This document shows, in pieces, positions 42,837-57,366 of a stretch of 57,366 bases of DNA (its first letter is position 1; every line of letters starts with the position of its first letter). Where the stretch lies: positions 1-57,366 of the forward strand of contig JADLBL010000027.1 in NCBI GenBank assembly GCA_020847735.1, read 5' to 3'. Origin of the DNA: Candidatus Eisenbacteria bacterium (GTDB lineage Bacteria > Eisenbacteria > RBG-16-71-46). The notes beneath the pieces were generated by a model. That model did not search any database and was not told the origin of the DNA. It saw nothing but the letters and a program-made list of their open reading frames with translations. The position numbers and the translations under genes are program-made.

Positions 42837-42953
42837 GCCGTCTCCCCGCGGAGACAAAAGCAGTCCGAAGCTCCCGGGCGTCCAACCCGGAGGATTCACG
42901 ACGCGCAGGGAGCGCGAAGGCCGCCGCGTGGCGGCAGGGGCCCGAAGGGATCG

Positions 42954-43343
42954 CTAGTCCGTGGAAAGCGCGCTGACCGTGACGTGGTACCCATCGGGGT
43001 CTCGCAGCGCGAACTCCACGGTGCCCGTGTTCGGATTGACGCCAGGCTCCGCCTCGAGCGCCGCGACAAGGCCGCGTGCGCGATCCAGCGCCTGATCAAA
43101 GGCCTCCACGCGGAAGAAGAGAAGCAGTCCATTGCCAGGTTCCGCGCGGTCAGGGCTGGCGAGGGATGGGTGACCGTGGTCGCCCCAGCGGTGGAGACAG
43201 AGCAGGACGGTTCCATCCGCGTCGAAGACCTGCCCGAAATAGTCATGCGCCGGCCGCGCGGCCGGCTGCCCCAGAAGCCGCTGATACCAGGCAACGCTAC
43301 GAGGAACGTCCCTGACTCCGATGATCGTCCACAAGCCCTGCAT
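42954..43343 (-). CDS. VOC / glyoxalase-like protein
   Basis: 129 residues from ATG 43343. A single vicinal-oxygen-chelate domain of the bleomycin-resistance/glyoxalase type: WTIIGVRDVPRSVAWYQRLLGQP, then DYFGQVFDADGTVLLCLHRWG and a C-terminal VEFALRDPDGYHVTVS with the conserved metal-site glutamate. Function may be resistance or isomerisation; the substrate is unknown. It lies downstream of attC i and may be the last cassette before rsmA, though its own 3' recombination site is unclear. Confidence 0.8.
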   Translation of the reverse strand: MQGLWTIIGVRDVPRSVAWYQRLLGQPAARPAHDYFGQVFDADGTVLLCLHRWGDHGHPSLASPDRAEPGNGLLLFFRVEAFDQALDRARGLVAALEAEPGVNPNTGTVEFALRDPDGYHVTVSALSTD

Positions 43344-43523
43344 CGCTGCCCCCAAGGCCAACTTCAATGCGCAGTGAGGCCGCAGCACGGGCTCATCGCA
43401 TCGCACTTCCTTCGACGAGTGGCGACAGGTCGCCGCGACGCCGGTGTCGCGGGACAGCACGACCTACAAAGCAGCCTGGAAGTCGGTGTCTCGTGTCACC
43501 TTTCGCCTCCACCGCCAATGGCC

Positions 43524-43604
43524 GGACAACGCTGGAGCTCGTCGGCCGGCCGCCCGGCGTCAGCGGCGGCGCGCGGCGCCTGCCGCCGCGACCGGCTGCT
43601 GGAC
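43524..43604 (-). other. attC i (degenerate), 3' of the molybdopterin cassette
   Basis: 81 bp bounded by GGACAAC (plus strand) and GCTGGAC. The core nearest the gene is off consensus by two bases. The GC-rich inner stem (GCGGCGGCGCGCGGCGCC region) is intact. Confidence 0.55.
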
Positions 43605-43619
43605 CGCCCCGCAGGGGAG

Positions 43620-45410
43620 TCAGATCGACTGCCGATACCCGTAGAATTCGTGGTCTTCGTTGTACCCGCCGTGGCCGCCACCGATTTCGGAGAAGCGGGC
43701 AACAAACTCGATGCCGGCGATCCACTTCACCTGCTTAAAGCCGAGTTGGACCTCGTTGCGCAGTCGAAGCGGCGCGCCGTGGCCATAGGAGAGCGGTTCT
43801 CCGTTCATGTCGTAGGCGAGCATCGTCAACTGATACCGCATCTGCTCGATGGGGTGCGCGTCGTAGTAACGACCCCCGTCGGCGCCGTCGCCGAGCGAGT
43901 AGAACACCACCCACTTCGCCTCCGCCTTCGGCTTGACGAGATCGAGGATGCTCTGCATCGAGACGCCACCCCATTTGGCGATGCCCGACCAGCCCTGGAT
44001 GCAGAAGTGCTGGGTAATTTGCTCGTGGTGCGGAAGGTCCCGCAACTGCTCGAGGCTCAACGCGACGGGATTCGCGACGAGCCCCCCGATGCGCAGCCGG
44101 TAGTCGGCGAAATGGTTGTCGAAGAGCGCCTGATACTCCAGCGTCTCGGGATACTCGCCGTTGTGCCAGAAGTACGGCGAGATGTCCTTCTCCGCGTAGG
44201 TCCCCGGCTTGGAATCGAGGTGCTCGAAGAGGCGTTGCGCCGGGCCGATCAGCGCATACCCGCCTCTCTGAACCCAGCGCGGGTGTCGCAGCGTCAAGGG
44301 CGTGGCCGCCACCCACGCGATCGCGACGACCACCATCGAGCCGGCGAAGATGACGAAACCGACCCAACCGTTCGCGTCGGTCCCTGCATAGATGTGGTTC
44401 AAGTTGCGCAACATGCCGGTGGCGAAGACCAGGGTGACGTGAATGAAAATGAAGAAGAGGAACCAGCACAGGACCAGGAAGTGCAGCGAGCGGGCGGTCT
44501 GGATGCTGAGCCTCTTGCTGACGCCATGGAACCGGGTCGAGAGCGCGGGTGACATGCCCAGCCCGGTCACGAACGCGAGCGGCGCCGCGATGAAGACCGT
44601 GATGAAGTAGGCGAGCATCTGGAGGCCGTTGTACGCGACCCAGCTGTCGTTGGCCGGCCAACTCAAGGACAGGTACTGAAGCAGAACCGAGGCGGCATCG
44701 GGGAACACGTGCCAGTTCGTCGGGACGATCCGGCGCCATTCTCCGGTCGCGAAGAGCAGCACGTAGAAAACAAGTCCGTTCGCGAGCCACAGCGTGTCCA
44801 TGCCGAGGTGCCACCATCGGGCCAGCCCGATCGAATGACGGATGCCCGGCAGCCCAAGATGCCCGGGCAGCGTGAGGGAGTCCTGTTTCGCCGTCCAGAG
44901 CGGAGTGGATGGAACCTGCGTCTGCATCCGGAGCCACTCCTTCCCAGGCGTCGAGTGTCGCGTCCAGTAGAGTCTGGGATGATCGGCGAGGATTTGCGCG
45001 CCGGCCCGGATGATGAAGCAGAGGAGGAACAAGTTGAGGAAGTGCTGGACGCGCAACCAGGCCGGCATCGGCGCGGCAAAGGTGGTTGCGAAGCCCGCGC
45101 CGGGATGACTCTGCACGAACGCCTCGACGGCGGGAATGCCGCGCAGGTACTGCGCCATGGCGACTCCGAGCAGCAGCAACACCCAACCCAGCGGAAGCAG
45201 CCACACCAGGTTGAACCATCGGCTCGCGCCGAATCGCAGATGGGGCGCGATCCCGAAGGCGGTCGGGATGGAGCCGGCCCAGGTCTTCGAGTCGACGACG
45301 TCCTCGCCCTTGATGAGCCGCTTGCGCAGCTGGCTCACCGCCTGCGGTGAGACGCGCTCCGACCCAGAGGGCGGCTGGGGCGTGGCGGCCGTTCGCGGTT
45401 TGTCTGCCAT
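43620..45410 (-). CDS. Cytochrome b561-like membrane domain fused to sulfite-oxidase-type molybdopterin domain
   Basis: 596 residues. Residues ~60-375 hold about six membrane segments with candidate haem-ligating histidines (H123, H201, H310, H324), as in bacterial cytochrome b561 / thiosulfate reductase b subunits. Residues ~410-596 are an oxidoreductase molybdopterin domain with the Mo-ligand Cys470 (FCIQGWSGIAKWGGV) and GADGGRYYDAHPIEQ... YGHGAPLRLRNEVQLGFKQVKWI. It unites in one chain what YedY (MsrP) and YedZ (MsrQ) do as two proteins. It should pass electrons between the membrane and an oxidised substrate; no twin-arginine signal is seen. GGGAG precedes the ATG. It is an unusually large cassette gene. 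Confidence 0.85.
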   Translation of the reverse strand: MADKPRTAATPQPPSGSERVSPQAVSQLRKRLIKGEDVVDSKTWAGSIPTAFGIAPHLRFGASRWFNLVWLLPLGWVLLLLGVAMAQYLRGIPAVEAFVQSHPGAGFATTFAAPMPAWLRVQHFLNLFLLCFIIRAGAQILADHPRLYWTRHSTPGKEWLRMQTQVPSTPLWTAKQDSLTLPGHLGLPGIRHSIGLARWWHLGMDTLWLANGLVFYVLLFATGEWRRIVPTNWHVFPDAASVLLQYLSLSWPANDSWVAYNGLQMLAYFITVFIAAPLAFVTGLGMSPALSTRFHGVSKRLSIQTARSLHFLVLCWFLFFIFIHVTLVFATGMLRNLNHIYAGTDANGWVGFVIFAGSMVVVAIAWVAATPLTLRHPRWVQRGGYALIGPAQRLFEHLDSKPGTYAEKDISPYFWHNGEYPETLEYQALFDNHFADYRLRIGGLVANPVALSLEQLRDLPHHEQITQHFCIQGWSGIAKWGGVSMQSILDLVKPKAEAKWVVFYSLGDGADGGRYYDAHPIEQMRYQLTMLAYDMNGEPLSYGHGAPLRLRNEVQLGFKQVKWIAGIEFVARFSEIGGGHGGYNEDHEFYGYRQSI

Positions 45411-45570
45411 TCACGAACTCCCGAGCGAGGTTCGTCGCGGTTTGTGTTCCGGAATCGGGCGGCCCTCTCTGTCAGCGTGCGTGAGGCACCGACCCCCTGG
45501 GAGTGTGGAGCTCATTTCAAGACGTCCTCACCGCGATGCCACGGCACATCAGGATGCAACCCGTTCTGCG

Positions 45571-45665
45571 GCCCAACGTCAGGTTGTGCTGCGGGCACTC
45601 CCAATGATGCGGCGGTGCAGCCGCCGCCTCTCTGCCGTGACCGTCGGCACCAACCATCGTTAGTC
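45571..45665 (-). other. attC j, 3' of the DUF4260 cassette
   Basis: 95 bp bounded by GCCCAAC and GTTAGTC on the plus strand, with an inner GCGGCGGTGCAGCCGCCGC hairpin. The DUF4260 stop TAA lies inside the core. Confidence 0.75.
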
Positions 45666-46061
45666 AGTGTGTCGTGTGCCGTCGCTAGCCCCGACGGACC
45701 CAAGGTGCGTGAACCGGAATCCCGCCGCGTACTTGAGTCCGAGTCCGATCGAACGATCCATGCCGATGTGCGCCGCCCAGATGAGCGCGACCGCGGTACC
45801 GGTCCCTGCACCCCGACAGAAGGCAATCACAACCGTAGGTCCTAGAAATGTGTGAAGCGCGTTGTAGGCGATGGCCCCGACGCGCGGGCTGGCGAAGTAT
45901 CCGAGCAGGGCCAGGTCAGGCGCGAGGATCAGTGCGCCGAACAGCCACCAGGAGCTCCCGCTTCGCGCGTAGAGGGCCACCGCGAGCACCAGGACCGCAA
46001 GCCCTTCCAAGCGAAGCAGGAGGCGCGGCCCACCGGTCACGGATCCGGTCTCGTGACTCAT
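45660..46061 (-). CDS. DUF4260 family small membrane protein
   Basis: 133 residues with three to four hydrophobic segments. LLRLEGLAVLVLAVALYARSGSSWWLF, LAPDLALLGYFASPRVGAIAYNALHTFLGP and the C-terminal AHIGMDRSIGLGLKYAAGFRFTHLG are the DUF4260 signature. Function is unknown. GGGAG lies 4 nt before the ATG. The stop is inside the attC core, which shows the gene moved as a unit with this site. Confidence 0.85.
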   Translation of the reverse strand: MSHETGSVTGGPRLLLRLEGLAVLVLAVALYARSGSSWWLFGALILAPDLALLGYFASPRVGAIAYNALHTFLGPTVVIAFCRGAGTGTAVALIWAAHIGMDRSIGLGLKYAAGFRFTHLGSVGASDGTRHTD

Positions 46062-46092
46062 TCGTCTCCCGAGCGGTGAGTGTCGTGCATCT

Positions 46093-46152
46093 GGCTAACG
46101 TTCCCGTTCGGCGGCGGCGCGCAGCGCCGTCCTCCGCAACCGGTTGTTCGAC
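46093..46152 (-). other. attC a, 3' of the ankyrin cassette
   Basis: 60 bp, GGCTAAC to GTTCGAC on the plus strand. The arms pair along about 20 bp around a TGC loop, with one unpaired base in the half-site next to the gene's 3' end, as in canonical attC sites. Confidence 0.85.
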
Positions 46153-46155
46153 CGT

Positions 46156-46848
46156 TCATGGCTGCTCATGGGGTCTCCCGAGCAGGGCTGCCTGCATTGT
46201 CGTTCTGTCGGGGTGAATCGTATACGTCCCGTAGCACAATCGCCTCAGGATCGAGTCAGGGCGCACGTACCAACTTGCCCAACTGAGCGGCGTATCGCCG
46301 TTCATGTCCTTCGCTTCGCGTGCTGCACCCGCACGAAGGAGTAGGTCGATCGCATCTTCCGAACCGAAGGCAGCAGCACGATGCAGAGGCGTCTCACCCT
46401 TGGTTCGGCAATCCCGCATGAACGCCCCGGTCGTGGCCCCGGGCTTCGTCACACGATGAGGGTCCGCACCGCGGGCCAGCAAGACGCGCAGGACGAGGTC
46501 GTGCGCGCCACGACGGGGTGTGCACAGCGCGGCATGCAGCGGGGCCTCGCCGGTGTCTTCCGCGGCTCTATTGACGTCGGCCCCCTGCTCGATCAAGAAC
46601 TCACAGAGTTGCCAATGGCCATGGAAGGCCGCGCCGTGCAGTCCATGGTTCTGCCCGAGCGGCGACAACGACTCGCCGCGGTCCAGGAGGAACCGCATCG
46701 CGCTCACGTCTCCGTAGTATGCACACCACCGCACGAGCGGTAGGCCGTCGGCGGCTACAGAGGTCGCGGCGTGGCCTTGAGCAACATAGTCCCAAACCAA
46801 GTCGGTGCGGCCGTCGACGATACGCTCGAGCAGTTCTTCCGGCTTCAT
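46156..46848 (-). CDS. Ankyrin repeat protein
   Basis: 230 residues. Five to six ankyrin repeats (about 30-205): DGLPLVRWCAYYGDVSAMRFLLDRG, NHGLHGAAFHGHWQLCEFLIEQGADVN, EAPLHAALC...LVLRVLLARGADPH, ETPLHRAAAFGSEDAIDLLLRAGA and GDTPLSWAS. A cytosolic protein-binding scaffold; partner unknown. GAGG precedes the ATG. The stop is 3 nt before the attC a core. Similar stand-alone ankyrin proteins occur as integron cassettes. Confidence 0.88.
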   Translation of the reverse strand: MKPEELLERIVDGRTDLVWDYVAQGHAATSVAADGLPLVRWCAYYGDVSAMRFLLDRGESLSPLGQNHGLHGAAFHGHWQLCEFLIEQGADVNRAAEDTGEAPLHAALCTPRRGAHDLVLRVLLARGADPHRVTKPGATTGAFMRDCRTKGETPLHRAAAFGSEDAIDLLLRAGAAREAKDMNGDTPLSWASWYVRPDSILRRLCYGTYTIHPDRTTMQAALLGRPHEQP

Positions 46849-46869
46849 TTCCGCCTCAAAGTTCCGTCG

Positions 46870-46966
46870 GTCGAACGCCCGGCATCAGGCGCGCCGGGCG
46901 TCGGCAGGCGCTGCGGGCCGGCCCTGGCGGTCCGCGCCCGCCGTCGCCCGCATGCCGTTGTTCGGT
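46870..46966 (-). other. attC b, 3' of the GNAT cassette
   Basis: 97 bp, GTCGAAC to GTTCGGT on the plus strand, with extended GC-rich arms. It carries the variant YCGAAC core that matches the 5' edge of the ankyrin cassette. Confidence 0.7.
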
Positions 46967-46984
46967 GGCATGTCGCCCCCATGC

Positions 46985-47482
46985 CTATGCCTGTGAAAAC
47001 TCTGGCGCATATTGTAGGTCGCCACCGCCTGACAAGGCCCCAGGCTGCAACTCTGTGGCCATGAACACCTCGTCCGGGACGTCGAACTGACACCGTAGCT
47101 CGAAGCTGCTGCCGCGCTGAAACCCGAAGCGTGGGTAGTACTCGGCATGGCCCACGACCACGACTGCCTCGTATCCCGCGATACGGCAGGCCTCCAGCCC
47201 GCGCAGGACTAACTCCGAACCGATGCCGCTTCGCTGCCGCGCCGGACTGACGGCCATGGGACCCAGCCCCGCCACACGGAATTGCTTCCCCATGACCTTC
47301 GCGGCCGTGAACAGGATGTGGCCGACGACCCCACCGGCCTCAGTTGCTACCAGCGAGATGCTGCCCGAGGACCCGCGCAACTTGTGGACCAGCGAGGCCT
47401 CGGTTGGCCTCGCGAAGGCTGCCGTATGGATCTGACGGACCGCGTCGTGGTCCGAAGCCAACTCGGATCGCACGTTGGTCAC
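46985..47482 (-). CDS. GNAT-family N-acetyltransferase
   Basis: 165 residues from GTG 47482 with a strong AAGGAGG ribosome site. The GNAT core shows VGHILFTAAKVMG, GLGPMAVSPARQRSGIGSELVLRGLEAC (acetyl-CoA pyrophosphate loop) and VVVVGHAEYYPRFGFQRGS. It is close to the YhbS-type acetyltransferases. The substrate is unknown; small acetyltransferases are frequent cassette cargo and include resistance enzymes, but nothing here identifies a drug. Confidence 0.9.
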   Translation of the reverse strand: MTNVRSELASDHDAVRQIHTAAFARPTEASLVHKLRGSSGSISLVATEAGGVVGHILFTAAKVMGKQFRVAGLGPMAVSPARQRSGIGSELVLRGLEACRIAGYEAVVVVGHAEYYPRFGFQRGSSFELRCQFDVPDEVFMATELQPGALSGGGDLQYAPEFSQA

Positions 47483-47506
47483 CAGTACCCACCCTCCTTC
47501 TTGTCC

Positions 47507-47524
47507 GTCTAACTCAAATTAGGC
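47507..47524 (-). other. Collapsed attC c between the GNAT and DUF4386-like cassettes
   Basis: Only the two outer cores remain (GTCTAAC at 47,507-47,513 and ATTAGGC at 47,518-47,524) with 4 nt between. The whole hairpin is missing. The DUF4386-like stop TAA lies in the core, as it would in an intact site. Confidence 0.6.
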
Positions 47525-48226
47525 GCCCGCCGCCGGGGCTGCACGTGGAGGCCACCGGAGAAGTATGATGCCCAGCCCGATCATCCAGATTGGTAGAAGG
47601 TAATTGTTCACGGCTGCCACCATGTCCACGGCGGATGTGACATTGCGGAACATGCCGACCAGACCCGCTACCCCGGTGAAGAACCCCACAACTGCAAGCC
47701 AGCGGGGCACGGCCCGGGAACGTAACAACGCCCACGCCGACAGCAGGAAGAACGTGCTGAAGCTGAGCTCGCCGAGGAACTCTCCGACATAATTGCCGAG
47801 GTATGAGTTCAGCCCGTCGAACAGAGTGCCAATGGTACTACGCTCGATGGCATCAGCCGAGGTGTAATGCTCTGCCAACTGCCAGTGAATGCTCGGCCAC
47901 CGCATCAGACCCAACATCATGCTCAGTGCGGCGATAATCGCCGTGTGAAGGGCAAGGAACATGGCGCCAGGATGAGTATGGCGCAGAGCATGATAGGCGC
48001 CCACCCCGGCCGGGATCCATACGAGTGGCAAGAAGGCATATATGGCCCAGACAGCCCGGCCGGTACTGCCCGTGGCCAGAAGTTTCGGCAACACGGTGCT
48101 TGCTGGCCCGTCAAGGACAGCCGGGTAGTCGAAGCGTGCTGCGAGAAACGCGAAGACCACCATGAAGGAGATGGCCCCGAGAATGAGGCTCCAGCCGCCG
48201 GCGCGAATCGATCTAGTCGAGTCCAC
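47519..48226 (-). CDS. DUF4386-like multispanning membrane protein
   Basis: 235 residues from GTG 48226 (GAGGG upstream). Six hydrophobic segments. FLPLVWIPAGVGAYHALR, SIHWQLAEHYTSADAIERSTIGTLFDGLNSYLGNYVGEFLGE and the closing PIWMIGLGIILLRW recall DUF4386 proteins. Function is unknown. A longer in-frame start at 48280 would lie inside attC d and is rejected. Confidence 0.65.
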   Translation of the reverse strand: MDSTRSIRAGGWSLILGAISFMVVFAFLAARFDYPAVLDGPASTVLPKLLATGSTGRAVWAIYAFLPLVWIPAGVGAYHALRHTHPGAMFLALHTAIIAALSMMLGLMRWPSIHWQLAEHYTSADAIERSTIGTLFDGLNSYLGNYVGEFLGELSFSTFFLLSAWALLRSRAVPRWLAVVGFFTGVAGLVGMFRNVTSAVDMVAAVNNYLLPIWMIGLGIILLRWPPRAAPAAGA

Positions 48227-48246
48227 GAGACCCTCTGTGTTGGTGC

Positions 48247-48304
48247 GCCTAACGTCTGGCGGCAGCGGCGAGCGTAGCATGTCCGCTGCACGCCGAGGTT
48301 GGGC
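48247..48304 (-). other. attC d, 3' of the first NTF2-like cassette
   Basis: 58 bp, GCCTAAC to GTTGGGC on the plus strand, with a CAGCGG...CCGCTG inner stem and one extra base on the gene-proximal side. Both cores match consensus exactly. Confidence 0.88.
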
Positions 48305-48352
48305 GTCGCCGGGTATAAGGAGATGTGACGGGGGCGCCAGTACAGTTGCGAG

Positions 48353-48757
48353 TCATGGACGGAACGCCTCGCCCGCAATGTACGTGTCGAAGAACTCCTG
48401 AAACCGGCTGATCTTTCCGTCGCGGACCGTGACGAGGTGAACAAAATCGGACTCGTAGACCTTGCCGGTTGATATGGCGCGGCACTTCATGTGACCGACA
48501 ACAGCAACTGAATCGGCATCCGTCAGCATCTGTCCCGGTGCGAGAACGAGGATCTCTTCCGCGTTCTTCCCGATAGTGATCCACTCCAGAAAGCCGGGGT
48601 GTCCCCTTCTTGTGCCACCGGCGGGATTGAATGGATTCTCAGGCTCGCCCCATTCAACGTCCTCCGAGAGGAGAGTAAGGATACTCGGTATGTCCTTGGC
48701 AGCGAACGCAGAGTATAGAGCGCGCACCAGATCAACGTTCTTCGCTTCGGAAGTCAC
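48353..48757 (-). CDS. NTF2/SnoaL-like protein
   Basis: 134 residues from GTG 48757 with GGAG 5 nt upstream. A cone-shaped alpha+beta fold: NVDLVRALYSAFAAKDIPSILTLLSEDVEWGEP near the start and a C-terminal VYESDFVHLVTVRDGKISRFQEFFDTY. Such proteins are ligand-binding or small isomerases; the substrate is unknown. The cassette edges carry perfectly complementary cores. Confidence 0.85.
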   Translation of the reverse strand: MTSEAKNVDLVRALYSAFAAKDIPSILTLLSEDVEWGEPENPFNPAGGTRRGHPGFLEWITIGKNAEEILVLAPGQMLTDADSVAVVGHMKCRAISTGKVYESDFVHLVTVRDGKISRFQEFFDTYIAGEAFRP

Positions 48758-48807
48758 ATGTGCTCCAATCTGCGTAGAAACGATTGCCTGGCTGTCGACC
48801 TTCCGGC

Positions 48808-48990
48808 GCCCAACGCTCCGGTTCAGCGGCGGGCGGTGCAGCGGACGGTCCGCTCCTCAGGACGGAGGCGGGTCTACTCGGCCATCTCCGCAAGACGCCC
48901 CGCATCGCTTGCGAACGGACGCATGAGCGAGGGGATCCTCATAACTCTCTCTGTCGGCGCCCGTTCGTCAAGTGCATGCGGTTGTTTGAC
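48808..48990 (-). other. attC e, split or composite site
   Basis: The right half (in gene sense) at 48,808-48,850 is nearly identical to attC f. It then diverges, and a matching left half (GTTTGAC core, 48,955-48,990) appears ~100 bp further on, giving a 183-bp site. The insert holds a 22-codon open frame with a GAGAG upstream, probably a remnant. Confidence 0.55.
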
Positions 48991-49002
48991 TGCACGAGCG
49001 TC

Positions 49003-49497
49003 CTACGAATGATCTCTCCCGAGGACGCTATCCTGCCACACTCCGCCATCCACCTGAGCGATCAGGGTGACCTCCCGAAAGGTGACGGTGAAGGGGGGCT
49101 GGCCCTCCAGGATCGCTGCAAAGGCCTCGTCCGAGCAGACGCCATTTCGAGGATGTATCACGGTAATGTGCGGCGCATGCTTTCGGACCGGCGCGTCGGG
49201 TCGGGAGAGCAGGATGGCTCTCAGGTGATCGAAGGACGCGGTGGACCCCGTTGCCGGCAAGGTCACGAGGTGGCCGTCCCGCACCGGGGCGCCAAACGCC
49301 AGGGTGATCGCGATCGGTCCGACAGCCGTGAGACGCTGGGCCACCTCGCGCCAGTCCGTGACCTCATCCTCACGGCAGAGGGTGACATGCGCACGGATCA
49401 GTGCGTGCTGGACGGGGTTGTAGGTCATGCGCAGCCGCTCGATTGCGGCCGCATGAGGCTGAGGCAGATAGAGGGTTGCTTGACGCCGACTGGCCAT
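49003..49497 (-). CDS. 2'-5' RNA ligase family protein (2H phosphoesterase)
   Basis: 164 residues from ATG 49497. Both catalytic H-x-T motifs are present: HVTL (residue ~37) and HITV (~110), each in a beta strand, as in LigT/2H phosphoesterases acting on 2',3'-cyclic or 2'-5' phosphodiesters in RNA or cofactors. The substrate is unknown. The start is in the 5' part of the cassette, 33 nt from the attC f core; no good ribosome site is seen. Confidence 0.8.
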   Translation of the reverse strand: MASRRQATLYLPQPHAAAIERLRMTYNPVQHALIRAHVTLCREDEVTDWREVAQRLTAVGPIAITLAFGAPVRDGHLVTLPATGSTASFDHLRAILLSRPDAPVRKHAPHITVIHPRNGVCSDEAFAAILEGQPPFTVTFREVTLIAQVDGGVWQDSVLGRDHS

Positions 49498-49529
49498 CCT
49501 GGAAGGCAGCAATACAGCGAGACCATGCG

Positions 49530-49593
49530 GTCTAACGTTCCGGTTCAGCTGCGGGCCGCGCAGCGGACCGTCCGCTGCAACCGGTTGTTGGGC
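49530..49593 (-). other. attC f, 3' of the cupin cassette
   Basis: 64 bp, GTCTAAC to GTTGGGC on the plus strand. The arms CCGGTTCAGC and GCTGCAACCGG pair with a single unpaired base on the gene-proximal side. One of the clearest attC sites in the window. Confidence 0.9.
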
Positions 49594-49694
49594 GGCTTCG
49601 TCGCTACACTCGTTCTCAAAAACGGTTCCCGAGGCTCCCGAACACGGAAAACGTCGCGTTCGTGTGCCACGCGGAAGGCCATGTAACCCGCCCG

Positions 49695-50171
49695 CTACTT
49701 GCCAAGCGGAGGCGGGGCCACGGTCATGCCGTGTCGCTTGAAGACATCCATCATCTTCGCGCGGTCGGGCGGGCCGCCCGCCGCGGCGCCGATTACCTCG
49801 GCAGCTTCGCGGAAGTACGCGGGCCCCATGATCGCAGGAGTTATGAGAACGAGTTGTTTCGCGTCCACGCTGCCGAGATTGTCGAAACGGTGCACCGCGC
49901 CTCGTGGGATGCACAGCGCCTGTCCAGGGCCAACCTCGATGGGCGTGCCGTCCACTGTCCAGGCAAGAACGCCCTCAATGCCGTAGATGATCTCCTCGTA
50001 GGCGTCATTCTTGTGGGCCGGTGCCGCCAGCTTTTGTCCAACGGGTACGAGCATCTCGAACACCGACGCGCCGCCGTTGGAATCATCGCTCGTGAGGAGG
50101 AACCGAATCCCGAGGGGACCAATCTTGATGGTCTCATCGGAGGGATTGACTCTCATCGTACCTCGCAGCAC
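49695..50171 (-). CDS. Cupin-domain protein
   Basis: 158 residues from GTG 50171, chosen for its AAAGGAG site 8 nt upstream. Cupin barrel: PAHKNDAYEEIIYGIEGVLAWTVDGTPIEVGPGQALCIPRGAVHRFDN contains both conserved cupin motifs with metal-site histidines and glutamate. A ~50-residue C-terminal helical tail follows. It may be an isomerase, dioxygenase or ligand-binding protein; the substrate is unknown. Confidence 0.85.
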   Translation of the reverse strand: MLRGTMRVNPSDETIKIGPLGIRFLLTSDDSNGGASVFEMLVPVGQKLAAPAHKNDAYEEIIYGIEGVLAWTVDGTPIEVGPGQALCIPRGAVHRFDNLGSVDAKQLVLITPAIMGPAYFREAAEVIGAAAGGPPDRAKMMDVFKRHGMTVAPPPLGK

Positions 50172-50202
50172 TCTCGAATCTCCTTTCAGTAAAGCCGGGT
50201 CC

Positions 50203-50209
50203 GCCCAAC
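50203..50209 (-). other. Residual attC g core
   Basis: GCCCAAC followed by TCAAGT, the same context as collapsed attC c (GTCTAAC-TCAAAT). No partner arm was found on the other side; the 3' end of the NTF2-like gene carries only an attC-like fragment (GCTCAGCGG). Confidence 0.35.
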
Positions 50210-50270
50210 TCAAGTCATGCGCCAACGTATGTGCATCCTCGTGCGGGCTCATTATCACGCGTGCCAATGC

Positions 50271-50639
50271 TCAGCGGTAATCGTTCTCCGTGAGAACGAT
50301 CACCCAGGCGCGGCGTTCAGCGATCTTGCCGCCGCGCATGACGAACACCTCGGCCATCGACATGCGCATCTCGCCGCCCCGGGCGCGCTTCGCCTTGCCG
50401 GTGAGTTCTGCCATGACGACGTCCCCCTGCTCAACCATGCGGACGACCTCCAGCTCGGGGGGGTCGATGAACTCAGGCGCCCCGTCGATGGCCTTGTCGT
50501 AGGCCGCTTTGCCGGTCAGATGGAAGGCGCCGAACACGGTCCACTCGATGTCGTCAGTCAGGCAGGACAGGATTTGCTCGTGATCATTCTTGCGAAAGCC
50601 GTCCAGGTAGGTGTTTACGGTCTCGATGTTTCGCGACAT
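50271..50639 (-). CDS. NTF2/SnoaL-like protein (second)
   Basis: 122 residues from ATG 50639 (AGGA upstream). ETVNTYLDGFRKNDHEQILSCLTDDIEWTVFGAFHLTGKAAYDKAI is the ketosteroid-isomerase-like/SnoaL opening, and GEMRMSMAEVFVMRGGKIAERRAWVIVL the closing strand pair. Substrate unknown. It is not closely similar to the NTF2-like gene at 48.4 kb, so the two are separate acquisitions. Confidence 0.85.
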   Translation of the reverse strand: MSRNIETVNTYLDGFRKNDHEQILSCLTDDIEWTVFGAFHLTGKAAYDKAIDGAPEFIDPPELEVVRMVEQGDVVMAELTGKAKRARGGEMRMSMAEVFVMRGGKIAERRAWVIVLTENDYR

Positions 50640-50696
50640 GTCTGTCCTGGCCCCCTGGTACGCTACCTGCGGTGTCCATGCGGTCATGCCCTTGGC

Positions 50697-50756
50697 GCCC
50701 AACGCTCAGCATCAGCGGCGGCGCGTGGCGCCGTCAGCTGCATGCTGTTGTTAGAC
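50697..50756 (-). other. attC h, at the 3' end of the YgjP-like gene (array boundary)
   Basis: 60 bp, GCCCAAC to GTTAGAC on the plus strand. The arms AGCATCAGCGG and CAGCTGCATGCT pair with one unpaired G on the gene-proximal side. The preceding gene reads into it and stops inside. Confidence 0.88.
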
Positions 50757-51537
50757 GCCCGCCCTTGGGCGCCCCATCCAGAATGATCGCCAACTCGACC
50801 TGCAGGTGCGCTTGATGTCTGCACAGCCATTGCTTGGCCTTCTCCGTGTCGCTGCAAAGGCCCTGCACGGTCAGCCAGAACTTCGCGGAATGGTCCGGGA
50901 CGGCCAGGTGGACGGCTTCGTGCGTCACGAGGTATCGGAGCACGTAGTCGGGCGCGAGGATGAGTCTCCAGTTGAACGAGAGGTTCCTGAGCGCCGAACA
51001 GTTGCCCCACTTGGTGCGTTGGCCCATCACGTACACACGCCGCCGGCGCTGACCCAGGCGGCCCATCACCGCCACGAGATGTCTCTCGATCGCCCGGCGG
51101 GCCTCACGACGTAGCCAGCACTCGAGGCTGCGCGCGACAGGGGTGCGCGAGCGTGGGCCGCGCGACACGACGATCTCGCTGTCGACCAGGCGAACGATGT
51201 TGCCTGCTGAGCGCGATGGGGTCATCTCGACCCGAACCCGGGTCGGCTCGCCTCTGAAGAGGATCTCGCCGACACGGCGCTGTGCCGGCCGCCGTGCACC
51301 GCGCAACCGCTCCGCTCGCTCGAGCTGATCGAGGATCCAGTCCCTGTTGGTCGAAAGGAACTCCGCGACTTCCTCACCGTTGCGCCGACTCGGCTGCACG
51401 ACCTCGACTCCGTTCGGCCCCACCCGGACGCGCAGCTTGCGGGCGGCCTTCGAGCGGACCAGCCGGTAGTCCACCACGCGGCCGCGGAGCCGGATCCGAT
51501 GCTGAGTCGCGGACTGCATGGCGTCAGCCCGCGCCAT
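50734..51537 (-). CDS. YgjP-like metallopeptidase of the type I R-M locus
   Basis: 267 residues. Zinc peptidase of the YgjP/DUF45 (M48-like) group: HEAVH at 206-210 with third ligand His216 in PDHSAKFW, preceded by the conserved RTKWGNCSALRNLSFNWRLILAP. Genes of this family often accompany hsdR. The ATG at 51537 overlaps the hsdR stop; an alternative ATG at 51519 follows it. The last residues (about GGRLTTACS) are encoded by attC h, so the natural C-terminus has been replaced or the stop supplied by the attC. Confidence 0.82.
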   Translation of the reverse strand: MARADAMQSATQHRIRLRGRVVDYRLVRSKAARKLRVRVGPNGVEVVQPSRRNGEEVAEFLSTNRDWILDQLERAERLRGARRPAQRRVGEILFRGEPTRVRVEMTPSRSAGNIVRLVDSEIVVSRGPRSRTPVARSLECWLRREARRAIERHLVAVMGRLGQRRRRVYVMGQRTKWGNCSALRNLSFNWRLILAPDYVLRYLVTHEAVHLAVPDHSAKFWLTVQGLCSDTEKAKQWLCRHQAHLQVELAIILDGAPKGGRLTTACS

Positions 51538-54500
51538 CGGACTTCGCCAGCTCGTTCACGGCAGGCTTGAGGAACGCCGGATCTGCCGCATCGCGATCGA
51601 AACCGAGCTGTTCGTAGGACGGATTCCACGACTCCGCGAGCAGCGATTGCTCGACGCGCATCCGGCCACCGATCGAGTTGCTCCAGCCGGTTCCGAGCAG
51701 CCCGTTCGTGCGCAGGTGCGACCCCATGCGCCGGGCGCACTCGGCAACGTAGCCTTCCGCGGCGACGGGGGCATGGGCGCGCAGGATGGTGAAGAGCCCG
51801 TACTCGCCCGGCTGCGTCAGCCCAAGTCTCTCGGGCTCCTGCTTCGTCGCCGCGGCTTGCGCTGCGATCTCCTCCAGCTCGCGCAGCCGTTTCGCCATCG
51901 CCTCATCGGAGGCATCCCTGCGCTCCTTCACGCGCTGGAGGCGCTCGCCGAGCTGGTGGTAGATGAAGCTCGGGTCGTCCTCCGACAGCTCGCCGGTGAG
52001 CATGGCTTCGAGCGCGGCGGCCTTGTCCGCGGGCGTGGGCAGCTCGTCCAGCTTCGCCCCGTAGTCCTCGTCGATCTTGAACACCGGAAGCGCCTCGGCG
52101 ACGTCGAGGAACGTGGTGTTTTCCTGGATGAGCTGCCGCGTCTTCGCCGACAGCTCGCCGTACGTGTCCTTGCTGCCGCGCTGGCGGCGCCGATGCGCGA
52201 CGTAGATGCCGCAGAGCCAGTTGTACTCGTGGCGGTGCGGATACAGGCACGGGTCCGGCGCGATGGCCTCCCACAGTCTCTCGAGGCTCCGGAAGTTCTG
52301 CTCGAAGTTCTTGGCGGCATCGGGGTCGCGCAGGCGCGCGAGCGCCGCGAGCAGGCATTCGCGGGTGTCGGCCCGCGTGATGCCCTTGAACGTCTCCATG
52401 CACCGGGCCACCTCGCCGGGCACCAGGGCCCGCAGCGCGTCCCAGTCGATGAGCGACTCCTCGCGAATGCTCTCGTCGAAGTTGAGCGCCTTCTCGAGGT
52501 TCGTGAACACGCCGAAGTAGTCCATGACCACGCCGGTGCGCTTCTTCATCGAAGGCAGCGGCCGATTGGTGCGCGCGATGGCCTGCAGCAGATTGTGGTC
52601 GCGCAGTGGCTTGTCGAGGTACATGACCTGCTCGACCGGCGCGTCGAAGCCGGTCAGCAGGCGGTCGCAGACGATGAGGATCTTGAGCGGCGGCCGCCAC
52701 TGGCTCCGGTCGACCCCGTGGCGCTCCCGGTTCCAGGCCTCCCACTCCGCGGGCGTGAGCTTGAAGTAATCAATCAGCTCGTCCTGCTTCGCCTTCGCGT
52801 ACTCGAAGTGCTCGACTTCCGGCTCGCTGTTCTGCGCCGACGAGATGATCACGTCGGACCATTCCGGCGGCAGGCCACGGGCCACGAGCTTCGCGTCGAG
52901 CGCGGCCTTGTACGCCGCGCACGCCTTGCGGTCGACGGCCACGAGCTGCGCCTTGAAGCCATTGGGGTCTGGGTGCTCGAGGAAATGCGCGAGCATCTTC
53001 TCCAGCACGATCTCCACCCGGTTGGGATGGCGCGCCAGCTCCTTCCACTGGGAGCGTTGGCGCTGGACGAAGTCCTTCGCTTCCTCGTCTTCGAGCTCCA
53101 TTTCCTCGCAGATCTGCTCGAAGCCGAGGCTGAGCGGCGCCTCGTCCACCTTGAACGGCACCTTGTCGCGCAGGTAGTGCACCTCGAGCGTGGCGCCGTC
53201 CTGGATGGCGCGCCGGATGCCGTAGTAGCTGAGGTAGCGCTCCTGGACGCCGTCCTTGAGCGGGCCGAAGTCGCGGTGCGTGTTCTGCATCGTCCGGTCG
53301 ATGGGCGTCCCGGTGAAGCCGTAGCGGAAGCCGTTCGCCAGCTTCACGCGCATGGTCATCGCGTAGCTCTCCGTGCCGTCGCCCTTCTGCGAGCGATGCG
53401 CCTCGTCCACCAGGCTGATGATGTTGTCGCGCGTGAGCGGCGCCAGTCCCTCCATCTTCTGGAACGACTGGATGGTGGTGACCAGCGTGCCCCGCCAGTC
53501 GGCGCGGAGCTTGCGCTTCAGGTCCTCGACGCCGAGCGCTTTCTCGACGTTCGGGTAATCGCAGGCGTCGAAGTCATCCGAGAGCTGCGTCTTCAGGTCG
53601 CGCCGGTCAACGACGATCAGCACCGTCGGGTTGCCGAGCGCGGGGTGCCGCCGGAGCTTCTGCCCGGCGAAGATCATCGTGAGCGACTTGCCGGAGCCCT
53701 GCGTGTGCCAGACGAGCCCCGTGCGCTCCTGCGTGTCCACGGGCCGGCCGGCGAGCGAGACCGTGCGATCCACCAGCTCGTTCACCGCCTCGAACTGCTG
53801 GTAGCGCGCGACCTTCTTGGTCGTGACGCCCTTCTTCGTCTCGAAGACGACGAAGTGCTGGAGGAAGTCGAGGAGGTGGGCGGGCTTGAGCCGCAGCAGG
53901 CCCTTGACCGGCACCTCCAGCGGATCGTCGGGGTCCTTCGACGCCGGATCGTTCCACCATCCGTGCTGCTCGGGATAGAGGCTCAGCCAGCGGCTCCACC
54001 AGTCGAGGTGCCGCTCGATGTCCTCCTTGCCCGCATCATGGAAAAGGACCGTGCCGAAGCGGAACTCGTCCTCGTCGGCGGCGACGCAGAAGACATTGGG
54101 CGTCAGCGCGAGCGGCGCCTGGCGCTGGTAGCGGTGGAGCTGGTGGACCGCCTCGCGCCAGTCCTTGCCGCTCGCCACGTAGCTCTTGTACTCGGCGATG
54201 ACGAGCGGGATGCCGTTCACCAGCAGCACCGTGTCCTCGCGGCACTGCTTCACGCCCTGCACCCGGTACTGGTTGGTGGCGGTGAAATCGTTCAGGCGCT
54301 GGCGGTCCGGCTCGAACGCGATGAACTGGACCGTGGTCGCGTCCGCTCCCGGCGCGAGCACCACCTTGGCGCCATCGCGCAGCAGGTCGAGCGTCTGGCG
54401 GTTCGCGGTCAGCCTGTCCGGCTGCGACATCGTCTTGCGCAAGGCCGCGACCGCGAACCTGGCCTGCGCCTCGGTCGTCACGCCTGAGTTGATGCGCAGG

Positions 54501-54676
54501 ATCGCCGCGACGAGCAGCTTCTCCACCAGCGGGTCATCCAGCGGCCGATCGAAGGCCGCCATCGCAGTCTCATCGCGATACGTCCAGCCGAGGCCTCCGG
54601 CCGCGTACTCCGGCGGCTTCGGTTCGCCACACAGCCAACGGAGGATCGGCTGCTCCACGTAGCGGTACTCGCTCAT
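51524..54676 (-). CDS. hsdR: Type I restriction enzyme R subunit
   Basis: 1050 residues. N-terminal PD-(D/E)XK nuclease with E162-Y-K164 (GIPLVIAEYKS); SF2 translocase with Walker A TQGSGKSL (325-332), DEAH at 424-427, GFTGTPID and the late motif QAIARTNRP; a helical C-terminal region (about 780-1050) for M/S binding. It translocates and cuts unmodified DNA when bound by HsdM and HsdS. The start ATG overlaps the hsdS stop (ATGA). It is intact here, but its specificity subunit is damaged and hsdM is out of view. Confidence 0.95.
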   Translation of the reverse strand: MSEYRYVEQPILRWLCGEPKPPEYAAGGLGWTYRDETAMAAFDRPLDDPLVEKLLVAAILRINSGVTTEAQARFAVAALRKTMSQPDRLTANRQTLDLLRDGAKVVLAPGADATTVQFIAFEPDRQRLNDFTATNQYRVQGVKQCREDTVLLVNGIPLVIAEYKSYVASGKDWREAVHQLHRYQRQAPLALTPNVFCVAADEDEFRFGTVLFHDAGKEDIERHLDWWSRWLSLYPEQHGWWNDPASKDPDDPLEVPVKGLLRLKPAHLLDFLQHFVVFETKKGVTTKKVARYQQFEAVNELVDRTVSLAGRPVDTQERTGLVWHTQGSGKSLTMIFAGQKLRRHPALGNPTVLIVVDRRDLKTQLSDDFDACDYPNVEKALGVEDLKRKLRADWRGTLVTTIQSFQKMEGLAPLTRDNIISLVDEAHRSQKGDGTESYAMTMRVKLANGFRYGFTGTPIDRTMQNTHRDFGPLKDGVQERYLSYYGIRRAIQDGATLEVHYLRDKVPFKVDEAPLSLGFEQICEEMELEDEEAKDFVQRQRSQWKELARHPNRVEIVLEKMLAHFLEHPDPNGFKAQLVAVDRKACAAYKAALDAKLVARGLPPEWSDVIISSAQNSEPEVEHFEYAKAKQDELIDYFKLTPAEWEAWNRERHGVDRSQWRPPLKILIVCDRLLTGFDAPVEQVMYLDKPLRDHNLLQAIARTNRPLPSMKKRTGVVMDYFGVFTNLEKALNFDESIREESLIDWDALRALVPGEVARCMETFKGITRADTRECLLAALARLRDPDAAKNFEQNFRSLERLWEAIAPDPCLYPHRHEYNWLCGIYVAHRRRQRGSKDTYGELSAKTRQLIQENTTFLDVAEALPVFKIDEDYGAKLDELPTPADKAAALEAMLTGELSEDDPSFIYHQLGERLQRVKERRDASDEAMAKRLRELEEIAAQAAATKQEPERLGLTQPGEYGLFTILRAHAPVAAEGYVAECARRMGSHLRTNGLLGTGWSNSIGGRMRVEQSLLAESWNPSYEQLGFDRDAADPAFLKPAVNELAKSDGAG

Positions 54677-55574
54677 GACGCAGCGACCTTCGCGGGGTTC
54701 GTCACGCGCACGCGGCCGGTGAGGAGGTCGTGCATGAGGGACTTCTTCAAGACCTCCAGCGCTGCTGCCTTTGCTCTGAGCGCGTCGACGTGTGTCCGGC
54801 ACGCGCTCGCGATCTCCACGAGGTGCGCCTGCTCGTCCTGTGAAGCAGGCACCGGCAATCTCAGGAGCCGAATGCTATTCGAGTTGATGTTGTGGTTGCC
54901 CGCAGAGGTTGTAACTCGGCGCAGTAGCTCACGTCGTCCACGCTCGAGCCCAAGAAAGACGTTCACGAAGTCCGGCAGTAGCCCTGCCTTCAGGCGCACG
55001 CGAATCAGGTACGAGGCGTAAACCCATGTGCGTGCGTCGGGACGTCGAAACACGACCGATCGCCCAACATAGTGTGGGTTGCCATTCGTGCGTACGAGCA
55101 GGAGATCACCGTCGTGCAGACTCAAACGCTCGACATCGCCGGTCGGCAGGTCCACCAACGCCAAGTCGCCCAGTGAGAGCCTATCGGCAACGACGTTTGG
55201 GATACGCAGGACCGGGTTCCCCCACGCTCTCTCGCTCGACGCCTTTGATGTTCCATAGCGCACGTCAGCGGTGAACTCTCGAAGTTGAACGTGTTGGGCG
55301 TGCAGGCTCTCGAAGGTGTCCTCGAGCACGGAGCGTTCAAGCTCGCGCGCCCGCTCGACCGCCGCGCGGGTGCGCTCCAGCGCGGTGTCCACGGCGTCGA
55401 GGATGCGGGCGATGGCGGTCTGCTCGTCGGGTGGGGGAAGCGGAATCCATGACCTTCTTATCTCGGAGGGGCGGATGAACGGCTGGGCGGTCGCATAGCG
55501 TTGCCAGAAACGCTCATCGTTGACCACATTCCAAAGAAACACCTCGTTCAGCTTCGACCGGTCGGGAAAAATCA
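54673..55574 (-). pseudogene. hsdS: 5'-truncated type I specificity subunit HsdS (first TRD lost at IS)
   Basis: About 300 residues remain: the end of target-recognition domain 1 (NVVNDERFWQRYATAQPFIRPSEIRRSWIPLPPPDEQ), the central helical spacer (IARILDAVDTALERTRAAVERARELERSV), all of TRD2 and the C-terminal repeat (PVPASQDEQAHLVEIASACRTHVDALRAKAAALEVLKKSLMHDLLTGRVRV). The frame continues into the IS without a native start. A half-HsdS with one TRD can sometimes dimerise, so residual activity cannot be excluded. The missing 5' part is not on the far side of the IS. Confidence 0.85.
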
Positions 55575-56964: not shown

Positions 56965-57207
56965 GACAAACTCGCTCGCCCCTGTCATCGGGGGTCGAGA
57001 AGCGCTTCCGACCCGGGAGTTGCTTGTCGGGGGCTACGACCAAGCCCTCGGCAGCGCTGTCGTTCTCAACAGGCTGGCACCGCTGAGCTGGTCGATTCGG
57101 TCGGGCCAGGCTCAGTTCGCCGTCGGCGTCGCGGCGGCCGACACGAGTGGCGACTTCTCCTGCTTCTTCAGTGATCCAGATAATGGAGACTTGTGCGTCT
57201 CAAATGA
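56965..57207 (+). pseudogene. 243-bp internal fragment of an unrecognised gene between two IS copies
   Basis: One plus-strand frame stays open for about 80 codons with natural composition (…PTRELLVGGYDQALGSAVVL… FAVGVAAADTSGDFSCFFSD…), ending where the second IS starts. It lacks both ends. It is not the missing part of hsdS in either orientation. No family recognised. Confidence 0.45.
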
Positions 57208-57366
57208 GGCTCCTCTCACCTTTCCGTGGAGTGCCGGGTCTGAGTTGACGGCGTAGGCGCTCCGGTTCATCCATGGCTCTTCTTTCTTCGCGGGAAGGAG
57301 GAGTCAGCGGGATGAACCAGGAGCCGGGCGATCTTGTCGCGGCGTATCTCGGGTTGCAAGGGTTCG
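57208..57366 (+). mobile_element. ISL3-family insertion sequence, second copy (left end only, cut by window)
   Basis: It starts with the same terminus (GGCTCCTCTC-N2-CTTTCCGTGGAG) as the copy at 55,575, in the same orientation, and is roughly 90% identical over the visible 159 bp. The two are therefore related but not a fresh tandem duplication. Confidence 0.85.
57312..57366 (+). CDS. ISL3-family transposase, N-terminus only
   Basis: The first 18 codons (MNQEPGDLVAAYLGLQGF), matching the start of the transposase at 55,681 with three substitutions. It runs off the window. Confidence 0.8.
   Translation, partial: MNQEPGDLVAAYLGLQGF

What the first reader, a model, noticed from the sequence alone, without database searches (positions are those of the whole stretch)
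43524..50756. An integron gene-cassette array (attC cluster) without a visible integrase
Seen directly: palindromes with RYYYAAC/GTTRRRY cores at 43,524, 45,571, 46,093, 46,870, 48,247, 48,808, 49,530 and 50,697 separate unrelated minus-strand genes. Cores at both edges of single cassettes are complementary (ankyrin, NTF2-like, cupin), the arms pair with one unpaired base on the gene-proximal side, and gene stops lie in or beside the cores. Established knowledge: these are the defining traits of attC recombination sites. Inference: the window carries a CALIN or the tail of a large chromosomal integron in a lineage outside the well-studied Vibrio/Xanthomonas/Pseudomonas hosts, with cargo of mostly unknown function.
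Basis: partly seen in the sequence, partly recalled or inferred. Interest (0 to 1): 0.92.

Follow-up and report, generated by a model that had tools for sequence, protein, structure and literature searches.

The report
Tail of a decaying chromosomal integron
This stretch is a row of captured gene cassettes, the far end of a bacterial gene-collecting device (an integron) whose capture enzyme has a broken gene on another contig of the same genome; it is a genuine but known kind of element, in a little-studied group of bacteria.

Summary
The eighth (43.5 kb) is degenerate. Cassette-edge cores match better than permuted ones (P=0.0036). Near-identical attCs recur in other genomes of the class without the window's genes, so this is no operon.

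The integrase is not missing. Relatives have MetG-TatD-HEAT-rsmA in a row. Here the MetG-TatD-HEAT side is on contig C9, directly before an integron integrase gene, an attI and a cassette with attC; the rsmA side is on C27 (the window), directly beside the array. C9 and C27 are most likely the two ends of one integron. Its integrase has an in-frame 115-residue deletion that removes a catalytic arginine, so the array is probably frozen and decaying: two boundaries have lost the attC hairpin, and one of them may be a relic attI.

The integrase points the same way as the cassettes, as in the 'reverse integrons' of Treponema. Verdict: new member of a known kind.

The parts
42886..42935 (-). 50-bp repeat, 92% identical to C9:57262-57311; the two lie at the two outer edges of the integron, in the same orientation once the contigs are placed
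   Evidence: Only two full-length copies in the genome, no full-length copy in 19 other genomes of the family
42954..43460 (-). VOC/glyoxalase-like gene, last gene of the inserted segment before rsmA
   Evidence: Pfam PF00903; no match at this site in relatives
43524..43604 (-). S1: degenerate attC (insert before R', both cores eroded)
   Evidence: R2 17.4 bits, E 0.06 for 43560-43603; edge match to S2 5/7
43620..45410 (-). Cassette gene: molybdopterin oxidoreductase fused to a cytochrome-b561-like membrane part
   Evidence: PF00174; 72.6% DNA identity to genes on Rhodococcus plasmids
45508..45562 (-). Remnant of an IS5-like transposase 3' end
   Evidence: 89% match to C13:1832-1886; family assigned by eye from the translation
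45571..45665 (-). S2: attC
   Evidence: R2 23.5 bits; fold z -4.3
45660..46061 (-). Cassette gene: DUF4260; stop overlaps S2
   Evidence: PF14079, 6e-35
46093..46152 (-). S3: attC
   Evidence: R2 58.3 bits; fold not better than shuffles, z -0.6
46156..46848 (-). Cassette gene: ankyrin-repeat protein
   Evidence: PF00023; both cassette edges exact, GTTCGAC/GTCGAAC
46870..46966 (-). S4: attC with long loop
   Evidence: R2 24.4 bits
46985..47482 (-). Cassette gene: GNAT acetyltransferase
   Evidence: PF13527
47507..47524 (-). Vestigial cassette boundary: R'' and R' cores (GCCTAAT-TTGA-GTTAGAC) with the hairpin missing
   Evidence: Read directly; ATTAGGC matches the DUF4386 cassette's other edge GTTAGGC 6/7
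47519..48280 (-). Cassette gene: DUF4386 membrane protein
   Evidence: PF14329
48247..48304 (-). S5: attC
   Evidence: R2 43.7 bits; fold z -4.0
48353..48757 (-). Cassette gene: NTF2/SnoaL-like
   Evidence: PF12680; both edges exact, GTTGGGC/GCCCAAC
48808..48990 (-). S6: attC with about 120 bp inserted in the variable loop
   Evidence: R2 24.2 bits, 48808-48990
49003..49500 (-). Cassette gene: 2'-5' RNA ligase/LigT-like phosphoesterase
   Evidence: PF13563
49530..49593 (-). S7: attC
   Evidence: R2 70.3 bits; 87-96% identical attCs in G014, G006, G024, G040, G010
49695..50177 (-). Cassette gene: cupin (likely start near 50160-50177; the open frame runs to 50267)
   Evidence: PF07883
50203..50240 (-). 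Boundary SnoaL/cupin without hairpin; possible relic attI (CACATACGTTGGCGCATGACTTGAG|TTGGGC)
   Evidence: Best of 1005 G|TT positions in the window with an attI profile, 16.9 vs next 13.2 bits; known attIs left out one at a time score 23-40. Not reported by model R3
50271..50702 (-). Cassette gene: SnoaL-like
   Evidence: PF12680
50697..50756 (-). S8: attC
   Evidence: R2 73.0 bits; 83-95% identical attCs in G006, G022, G002, G031, G042
50734..51537 (-). YgjP-like metallopeptidase gene whose stop lies inside S8
   Evidence: PF01863; stop read
51524..54802 (-). HsdR, type I restriction subunit (same order HsdR-YgjP in congener G003, without attC)
   Evidence: PF04313, PF18766
55681..56934 (+). 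ISL3 transposase next to the remaining C-terminal part of hsdS; a second partial copy at 57202-57366 ends the contig
   Evidence: PF01610; self-match 85.6%

Best explanation
The window carries the attI-distal part of a chromosomal integron of the 'reverse' type: integrase gene, attI and cassettes all point the same way. It sits between a HEAT-repeat gene and rsmA. Cassettes were captured one at a time by the integrase, which recombines the folded bottom strand of attC at G|TTRRRY with attI. The attI end, with intI, attI and a first cassette, is on contig C9; transposons and a contig gap separate it from the window's array. The integrase gene has since lost 115 codons in frame, including a catalytic arginine, so insertion and excision have probably stopped in this genome and the array is decaying: hairpins lost, loops enlarged, cores mutated, transposons inserted. 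Shown: attC identity, cassette-edge logic, synteny with relatives, the deletion in the assembly. Inferred: physical joining of the two contigs, loss of activity, and the capture mechanism, which is taken from known integrons.
For: Cassette-edge complementarity, P=0.0036. Near-identical attCs recur in other genomes of the class without the window's genes. TIGR02249 match and in-frame deletion on C9; catalytic Arg position by alignment to 2A3V, the Vibrio IntI4 structure. attI core 3' of intI, conserved in G006, G022, G014 and G045. MetG-TatD-HEAT-rsmA order in relatives, broken in this genome exactly at the ends that carry intI (C9) and the array (C27). The array and the C9 attC have the same orientation once placed between HEAT and rsmA.
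Against: The contigs are not physically joined. The 6.6 kb right of S8 (YgjP, HsdR, HsdS fragment, ISL3) is not a normal cassette and its relation to the array is unclear. The intI deletion could be an assembly error. S1 is only weakly supported. No recombination was tested.
Confidence: 0.83

Rival explanations
1. A true CALIN: a cassette cluster that arose away from any integrase, unrelated to the intI on C9.
For: No intI on the window's contig; CALINs are common and have been proposed to be degraded integrons (PMC9024848). The contigs are not joined.
Against: rsmA flanks the array on C27, and the genes that precede rsmA in relatives flank intI on C9; two unrelated integron pieces would have to break the same junction. 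attC types are shared between C9 and the window (90% identity).
Confidence: 0.12
2. An ordinary operon or gene cluster with repeated intergenic hairpins (REP-like or terminators).
For: All genes lie on one strand, and the spacers are G+C-rich palindromes.
Against: Seven top hits to an independent attC model; edge complementarity across genes rather than within sites; the same hairpins lie beside different genes in other genomes; only the array and one site beside intI match in 3.66 Mb.
Confidence: 0.01
3. The array is still active: the integrase deletion is an assembly error, or an integrase in trans (plasmid, relative) works on it.
For: Four attCs are well preserved (43.7-73 bits). The deletion is in frame and the rest of the gene has no stop. 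CALIN cassettes can be mobilised in trans (stated in PMC9668308).
Against: No second integrase above the family cut-off in the 99.6%-complete genome; half of the boundaries are degenerate or lack the hairpin.
Confidence: 0.15

Closest known systems
Reverse chromosomal integrons of Treponema (PMC3607928, PMC4909258)
   Same: [quoted passage not shown] array with several attCs. T. phagedenis keeps attCs at the syntenic site without an intI.
   Different: Different host class; intI here is truncated rather than absent; the array is interrupted by IS and a restriction system. The integrase groups with those of Rokubacteria, Acidobacteria gp6, Krumholzibacteriota and Elusimicrobia.
CALIN as defined by IntegronFinder (PMC9024848)
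   Same: At least two attCs with no integrase nearby on the contig.
   Different: Synteny places an intI and attI at the other edge of the same locus, on another contig.
Complete integron of relative G006, contig C136 (L017)
   Same: intI, attI core CTACTTCGAG|TTAGGC about 180 bp after intI, attCs 89-95% identical to S7 and S8, same orientation.
   Different: Full-length integrase; different chromosomal location; different cassette genes.

Membership tests
Integron | Two or more attC sites separating unrelated genes, under 4 kb apart | tested here: met
   Seven sites by an independent model, all on one strand
Integron | Cassette logic: R' edge of a cassette complementary to its own R'' | tested here: met
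   48/56 against 42.5 in permutations, P=0.0036
Integron | Integron integrase (TIGR02249, with the IntI-specific patch) | tested here: inconclusive
   Present on C9 as a deleted gene: 256 bits against a cut-off of 265; patch region retained, catalytic Arg region missing
Integron | attI next to intI | tested here: met
   Conserved sequence before G|TTAGRY, about 180-270 bp 3' of intI in five genomes of the class
Integron | Recombination of folded bottom-strand attC by IntI | not testable with these tools
   Needs an attC x attI assay
Integron | Cassette promoter Pc | not tested
   Not examined
CALIN | No integrase belonging to the same element | tested here: inconclusive
   None on the contig, but synteny links a deleted intI on C9
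Reverse integron | intI co-directional with the cassettes and upstream of attI | tested here: met
   C9; the orientation needs one change on the IntI tree

The most novel reading that the evidence does not exclude
The locus is a fusion of two integrons: the array from the cupin cassette onward once had its own attI, now a relic at 50,203-50,240, and a second intI-attI unit was added upstream. In this class, attI-led arrays outlive their integrase genes, so that one genome holds several attI sites with few or no working integrases.
Probability: 0.3. Interest if true: 0.55.

Novelty: new member of a known kind. Interest (0 to 1): 0.45.

Why it matters
It adds a chromosomal integron with a disabled integrase gene, and a class of poorly studied bacteria in which integrons are common: of 59 searched relatives (most of this class), 13 carry an integrase above the family cut-off and 20 genomes carry attCs like these. 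The synteny argument (finding the two halves at a broken conserved junction) shows that an apparent CALIN in a draft genome can be the tail of an integron with an integrase gene elsewhere in the assembly. An attI profile for this lineage allows arrays without integrase to be sorted into those that still have a head and those that do not.

Tried and rejected
Rfam has no family that matches. Modelling the gene strand was dropped because the bottom strand is the one that folds best. Model R1, trained partly on the window's own sites, is circular for four of them, hence R2; R2's members were picked with R1, but all lie beside intI genes of other lineages. The idea that the two hairpin-less boundaries are both attI-like was tested: only 50,203-50,240 stands out; 47,507 ranks 21st. 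Model R3 did not report the 50,203 site, so it stays tentative, and no integrase remnant was found upstream of it. Homologues of the ankyrin and cupin genes in relatives show no attC nearby, so exchange of these particular cassettes was not shown. The organism could not be named; one genome-contig scan was allowed and was used for the integrase.

Full report
Checking the observation. The region 43.4-50.8 kb was read directly. On the gene strand the spacers read like GTCTAACAACAGCATGCAGCTGACGG...CCGCCGCTGATGCTGAGCGTTGGGC, that is R''-L''-loop-L'-R' with one extra base in L''. Folded as single-stranded DNA, S2, S5, S7, S8 and the C9 site are 3.1-5.6 SD more stable than shuffles; S3 is not (z -0.6), S4 is in between (-2.1), and S1 is weak (-1.9). 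In the five-site alignment 92.5% of pair cells are paired against 82.4% in shuffles, and every slid control is worse.

Independent test. Model R1 comes from four window sites and one C9 site. With it, attCs were collected beside integron integrases of named genomes, and model R2 was built from those 25 sequences only. R2 on the window, filters off, ranks S8, S7, S3, S5, S4, S6, S2 first, all on the + strand (the bottom strand, which recombines in known integrons); S1 follows at E 0.06 after two reverse-strand echoes of strong sites. In the 3.66 Mb genome R1 gives strong matches only at window sites and one site on C9, and R2 agrees. In the loci around integrase genes, R2 hits mostly fall on one side of intI and on one strand, as expected of arrays.

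Cassette logic. If cassettes are the units, the right core of one site should match the left core of the next, not its own partner. Over eight edges the match is 48/56 against a permutation mean of 42.5 (P=0.0036; 36/49 within sites). The ankyrin, NTF2-like and cupin cassettes match exactly.

Not an operon. A DNA search of 47 class genomes with 42,950-51,540 gives isolated 50-90 bp matches of 83-96% to S7 and S8 in G006, G014, G022, G024, G040, G010, G002, G031 and G042, without the window's genes beside them. In G006 these attCs follow a short DUF1059-like gene and a methyltransferase gene, assigned by eye.

The integrase. The family TIGR02249 has one strong match in this genome, on C9:57534-58130. 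The gene is open but lacks the equivalent of residues 78-192 of the G006 integrase (115 codons, in frame); the lost part holds the Arg that aligns with R135 of the Vibrio integrase 2A3V. The rest is 77% identical to G006 over 197 columns. After intI, in the same direction, come an attI core, CTACTTGGAG|TTAGGC (conserved in G006, G022, G014, G045), a cassette, a perfect attC at C9:59692-59751, a DUF1801 gene, and an IS1380 transposase that runs into the contig end.

One locus. In G001, G002, G004, G005 and G012 a HEAT-repeat gene directly precedes rsmA (about 40 bp in G001 and G002), with TatD and MetG before it where enough was read; in G014 and G007 about 2 kb lies between. In this genome the MetG, TatD and HEAT genes are on C9, and HEAT is followed by intI, whereas rsmA is on the window contig and is preceded by the VOC gene and the array. 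The orientation fits one integron running from HEAT to rsmA. It is absent from that site in congeners G001, G002 and G004, and G006 has its integron elsewhere. A 50-bp repeat, present twice at full length in the genome and at full length in no other of 19 family genomes, lies between HEAT and intI on C9 and just before rsmA on C27, in the same orientation. It could mark how the segment arrived; shorter partial copies elsewhere keep this open.

Mechanism and state. Capture and excision by an integrase acting on folded attC is established for integrons and is taken over here by inference. In this genome the integrase should be inactive, and the array shows decay. Two hairpins are lost, S6 has about 120 bp in its loop, S1 is eroded, an IS5-like remnant lies at 45,508-45,562, and ISL3 copies lie beside a partial hsdS. 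The 50,203-50,240 boundary scores 16.9 bits with an attI profile, the best of 1005 G|TT positions (next 13.2), but below true attIs (23-40), and the sequence-only model R3 does not report it; it may be a relic attI, which would mean two fused arrays.

Compared with what is known. The co-directional intI is the 'reverse' layout of Treponema (PMC3607928, PMC4909258); attCs at the syntenic site without intI are also reported there for T. phagedenis. On the IntI tree this layout needs one change. CALIN and the warning about split integrons in drafts are in PMC9024848. So this is a new member of a known kind.

Limits. Draft genome from unnamed handles; rough E-values; no reads. The taxon was not named.

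Noticed in passing
L111 (Gallionella) 1-2944; L056:4837; L058:7097; L191, L200, L202, L203 (G005 contig starts): The same sequence start, G|TTGAACTAAACCGC...GCGGT, sits exactly at the attI core position in Gallionella, a Rokubacteria genome and four separate attI-like sites of G005, and after an attC in another Rokubacteria genome. In Gallionella it leads into a tyrosine recombinase and a protein that looks like an IS91-family transposase (by eye). It may be an IS91-like element that uses integron cores (GTTGAAC) as targets.
   Followed up: partly
G022:C300:17214-17257 (L156/L198), G045:C989:7743 (L199), G005 C53, C31, C132: attI-like sites without an intact intI match nearby, found with an attI profile over 47 class genomes; some G005 copies appear, by eye, to keep only the last codons of intI.
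   Followed up: partly
window 42886-42935 and C9:57262-57311: A 50-bp near-identical repeat lies at the two outer edges of the integron, in the same orientation, and nowhere else at full length in the genome.
   Followed up: partly
window 50734-55545: A type I restriction operon end (HsdS fragment, HsdR, YgjP) whose last stop codon lies inside attC S8; the congener G003 has HsdR-YgjP without attC.
   Followed up: partly
window 43620-45410: The molybdopterin oxidoreductase cassette gene is 72.6% identical in DNA to genes on Rhodococcus plasmids and 71% on Curtobacterium plasmids, suggesting a distant transfer.
   Followed up: no
L017, L016, L012, L018 attI regions: Palindromes like GTATCCGGATAC recur just before attI in several genomes of the class; role unknown.
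   Followed up: no
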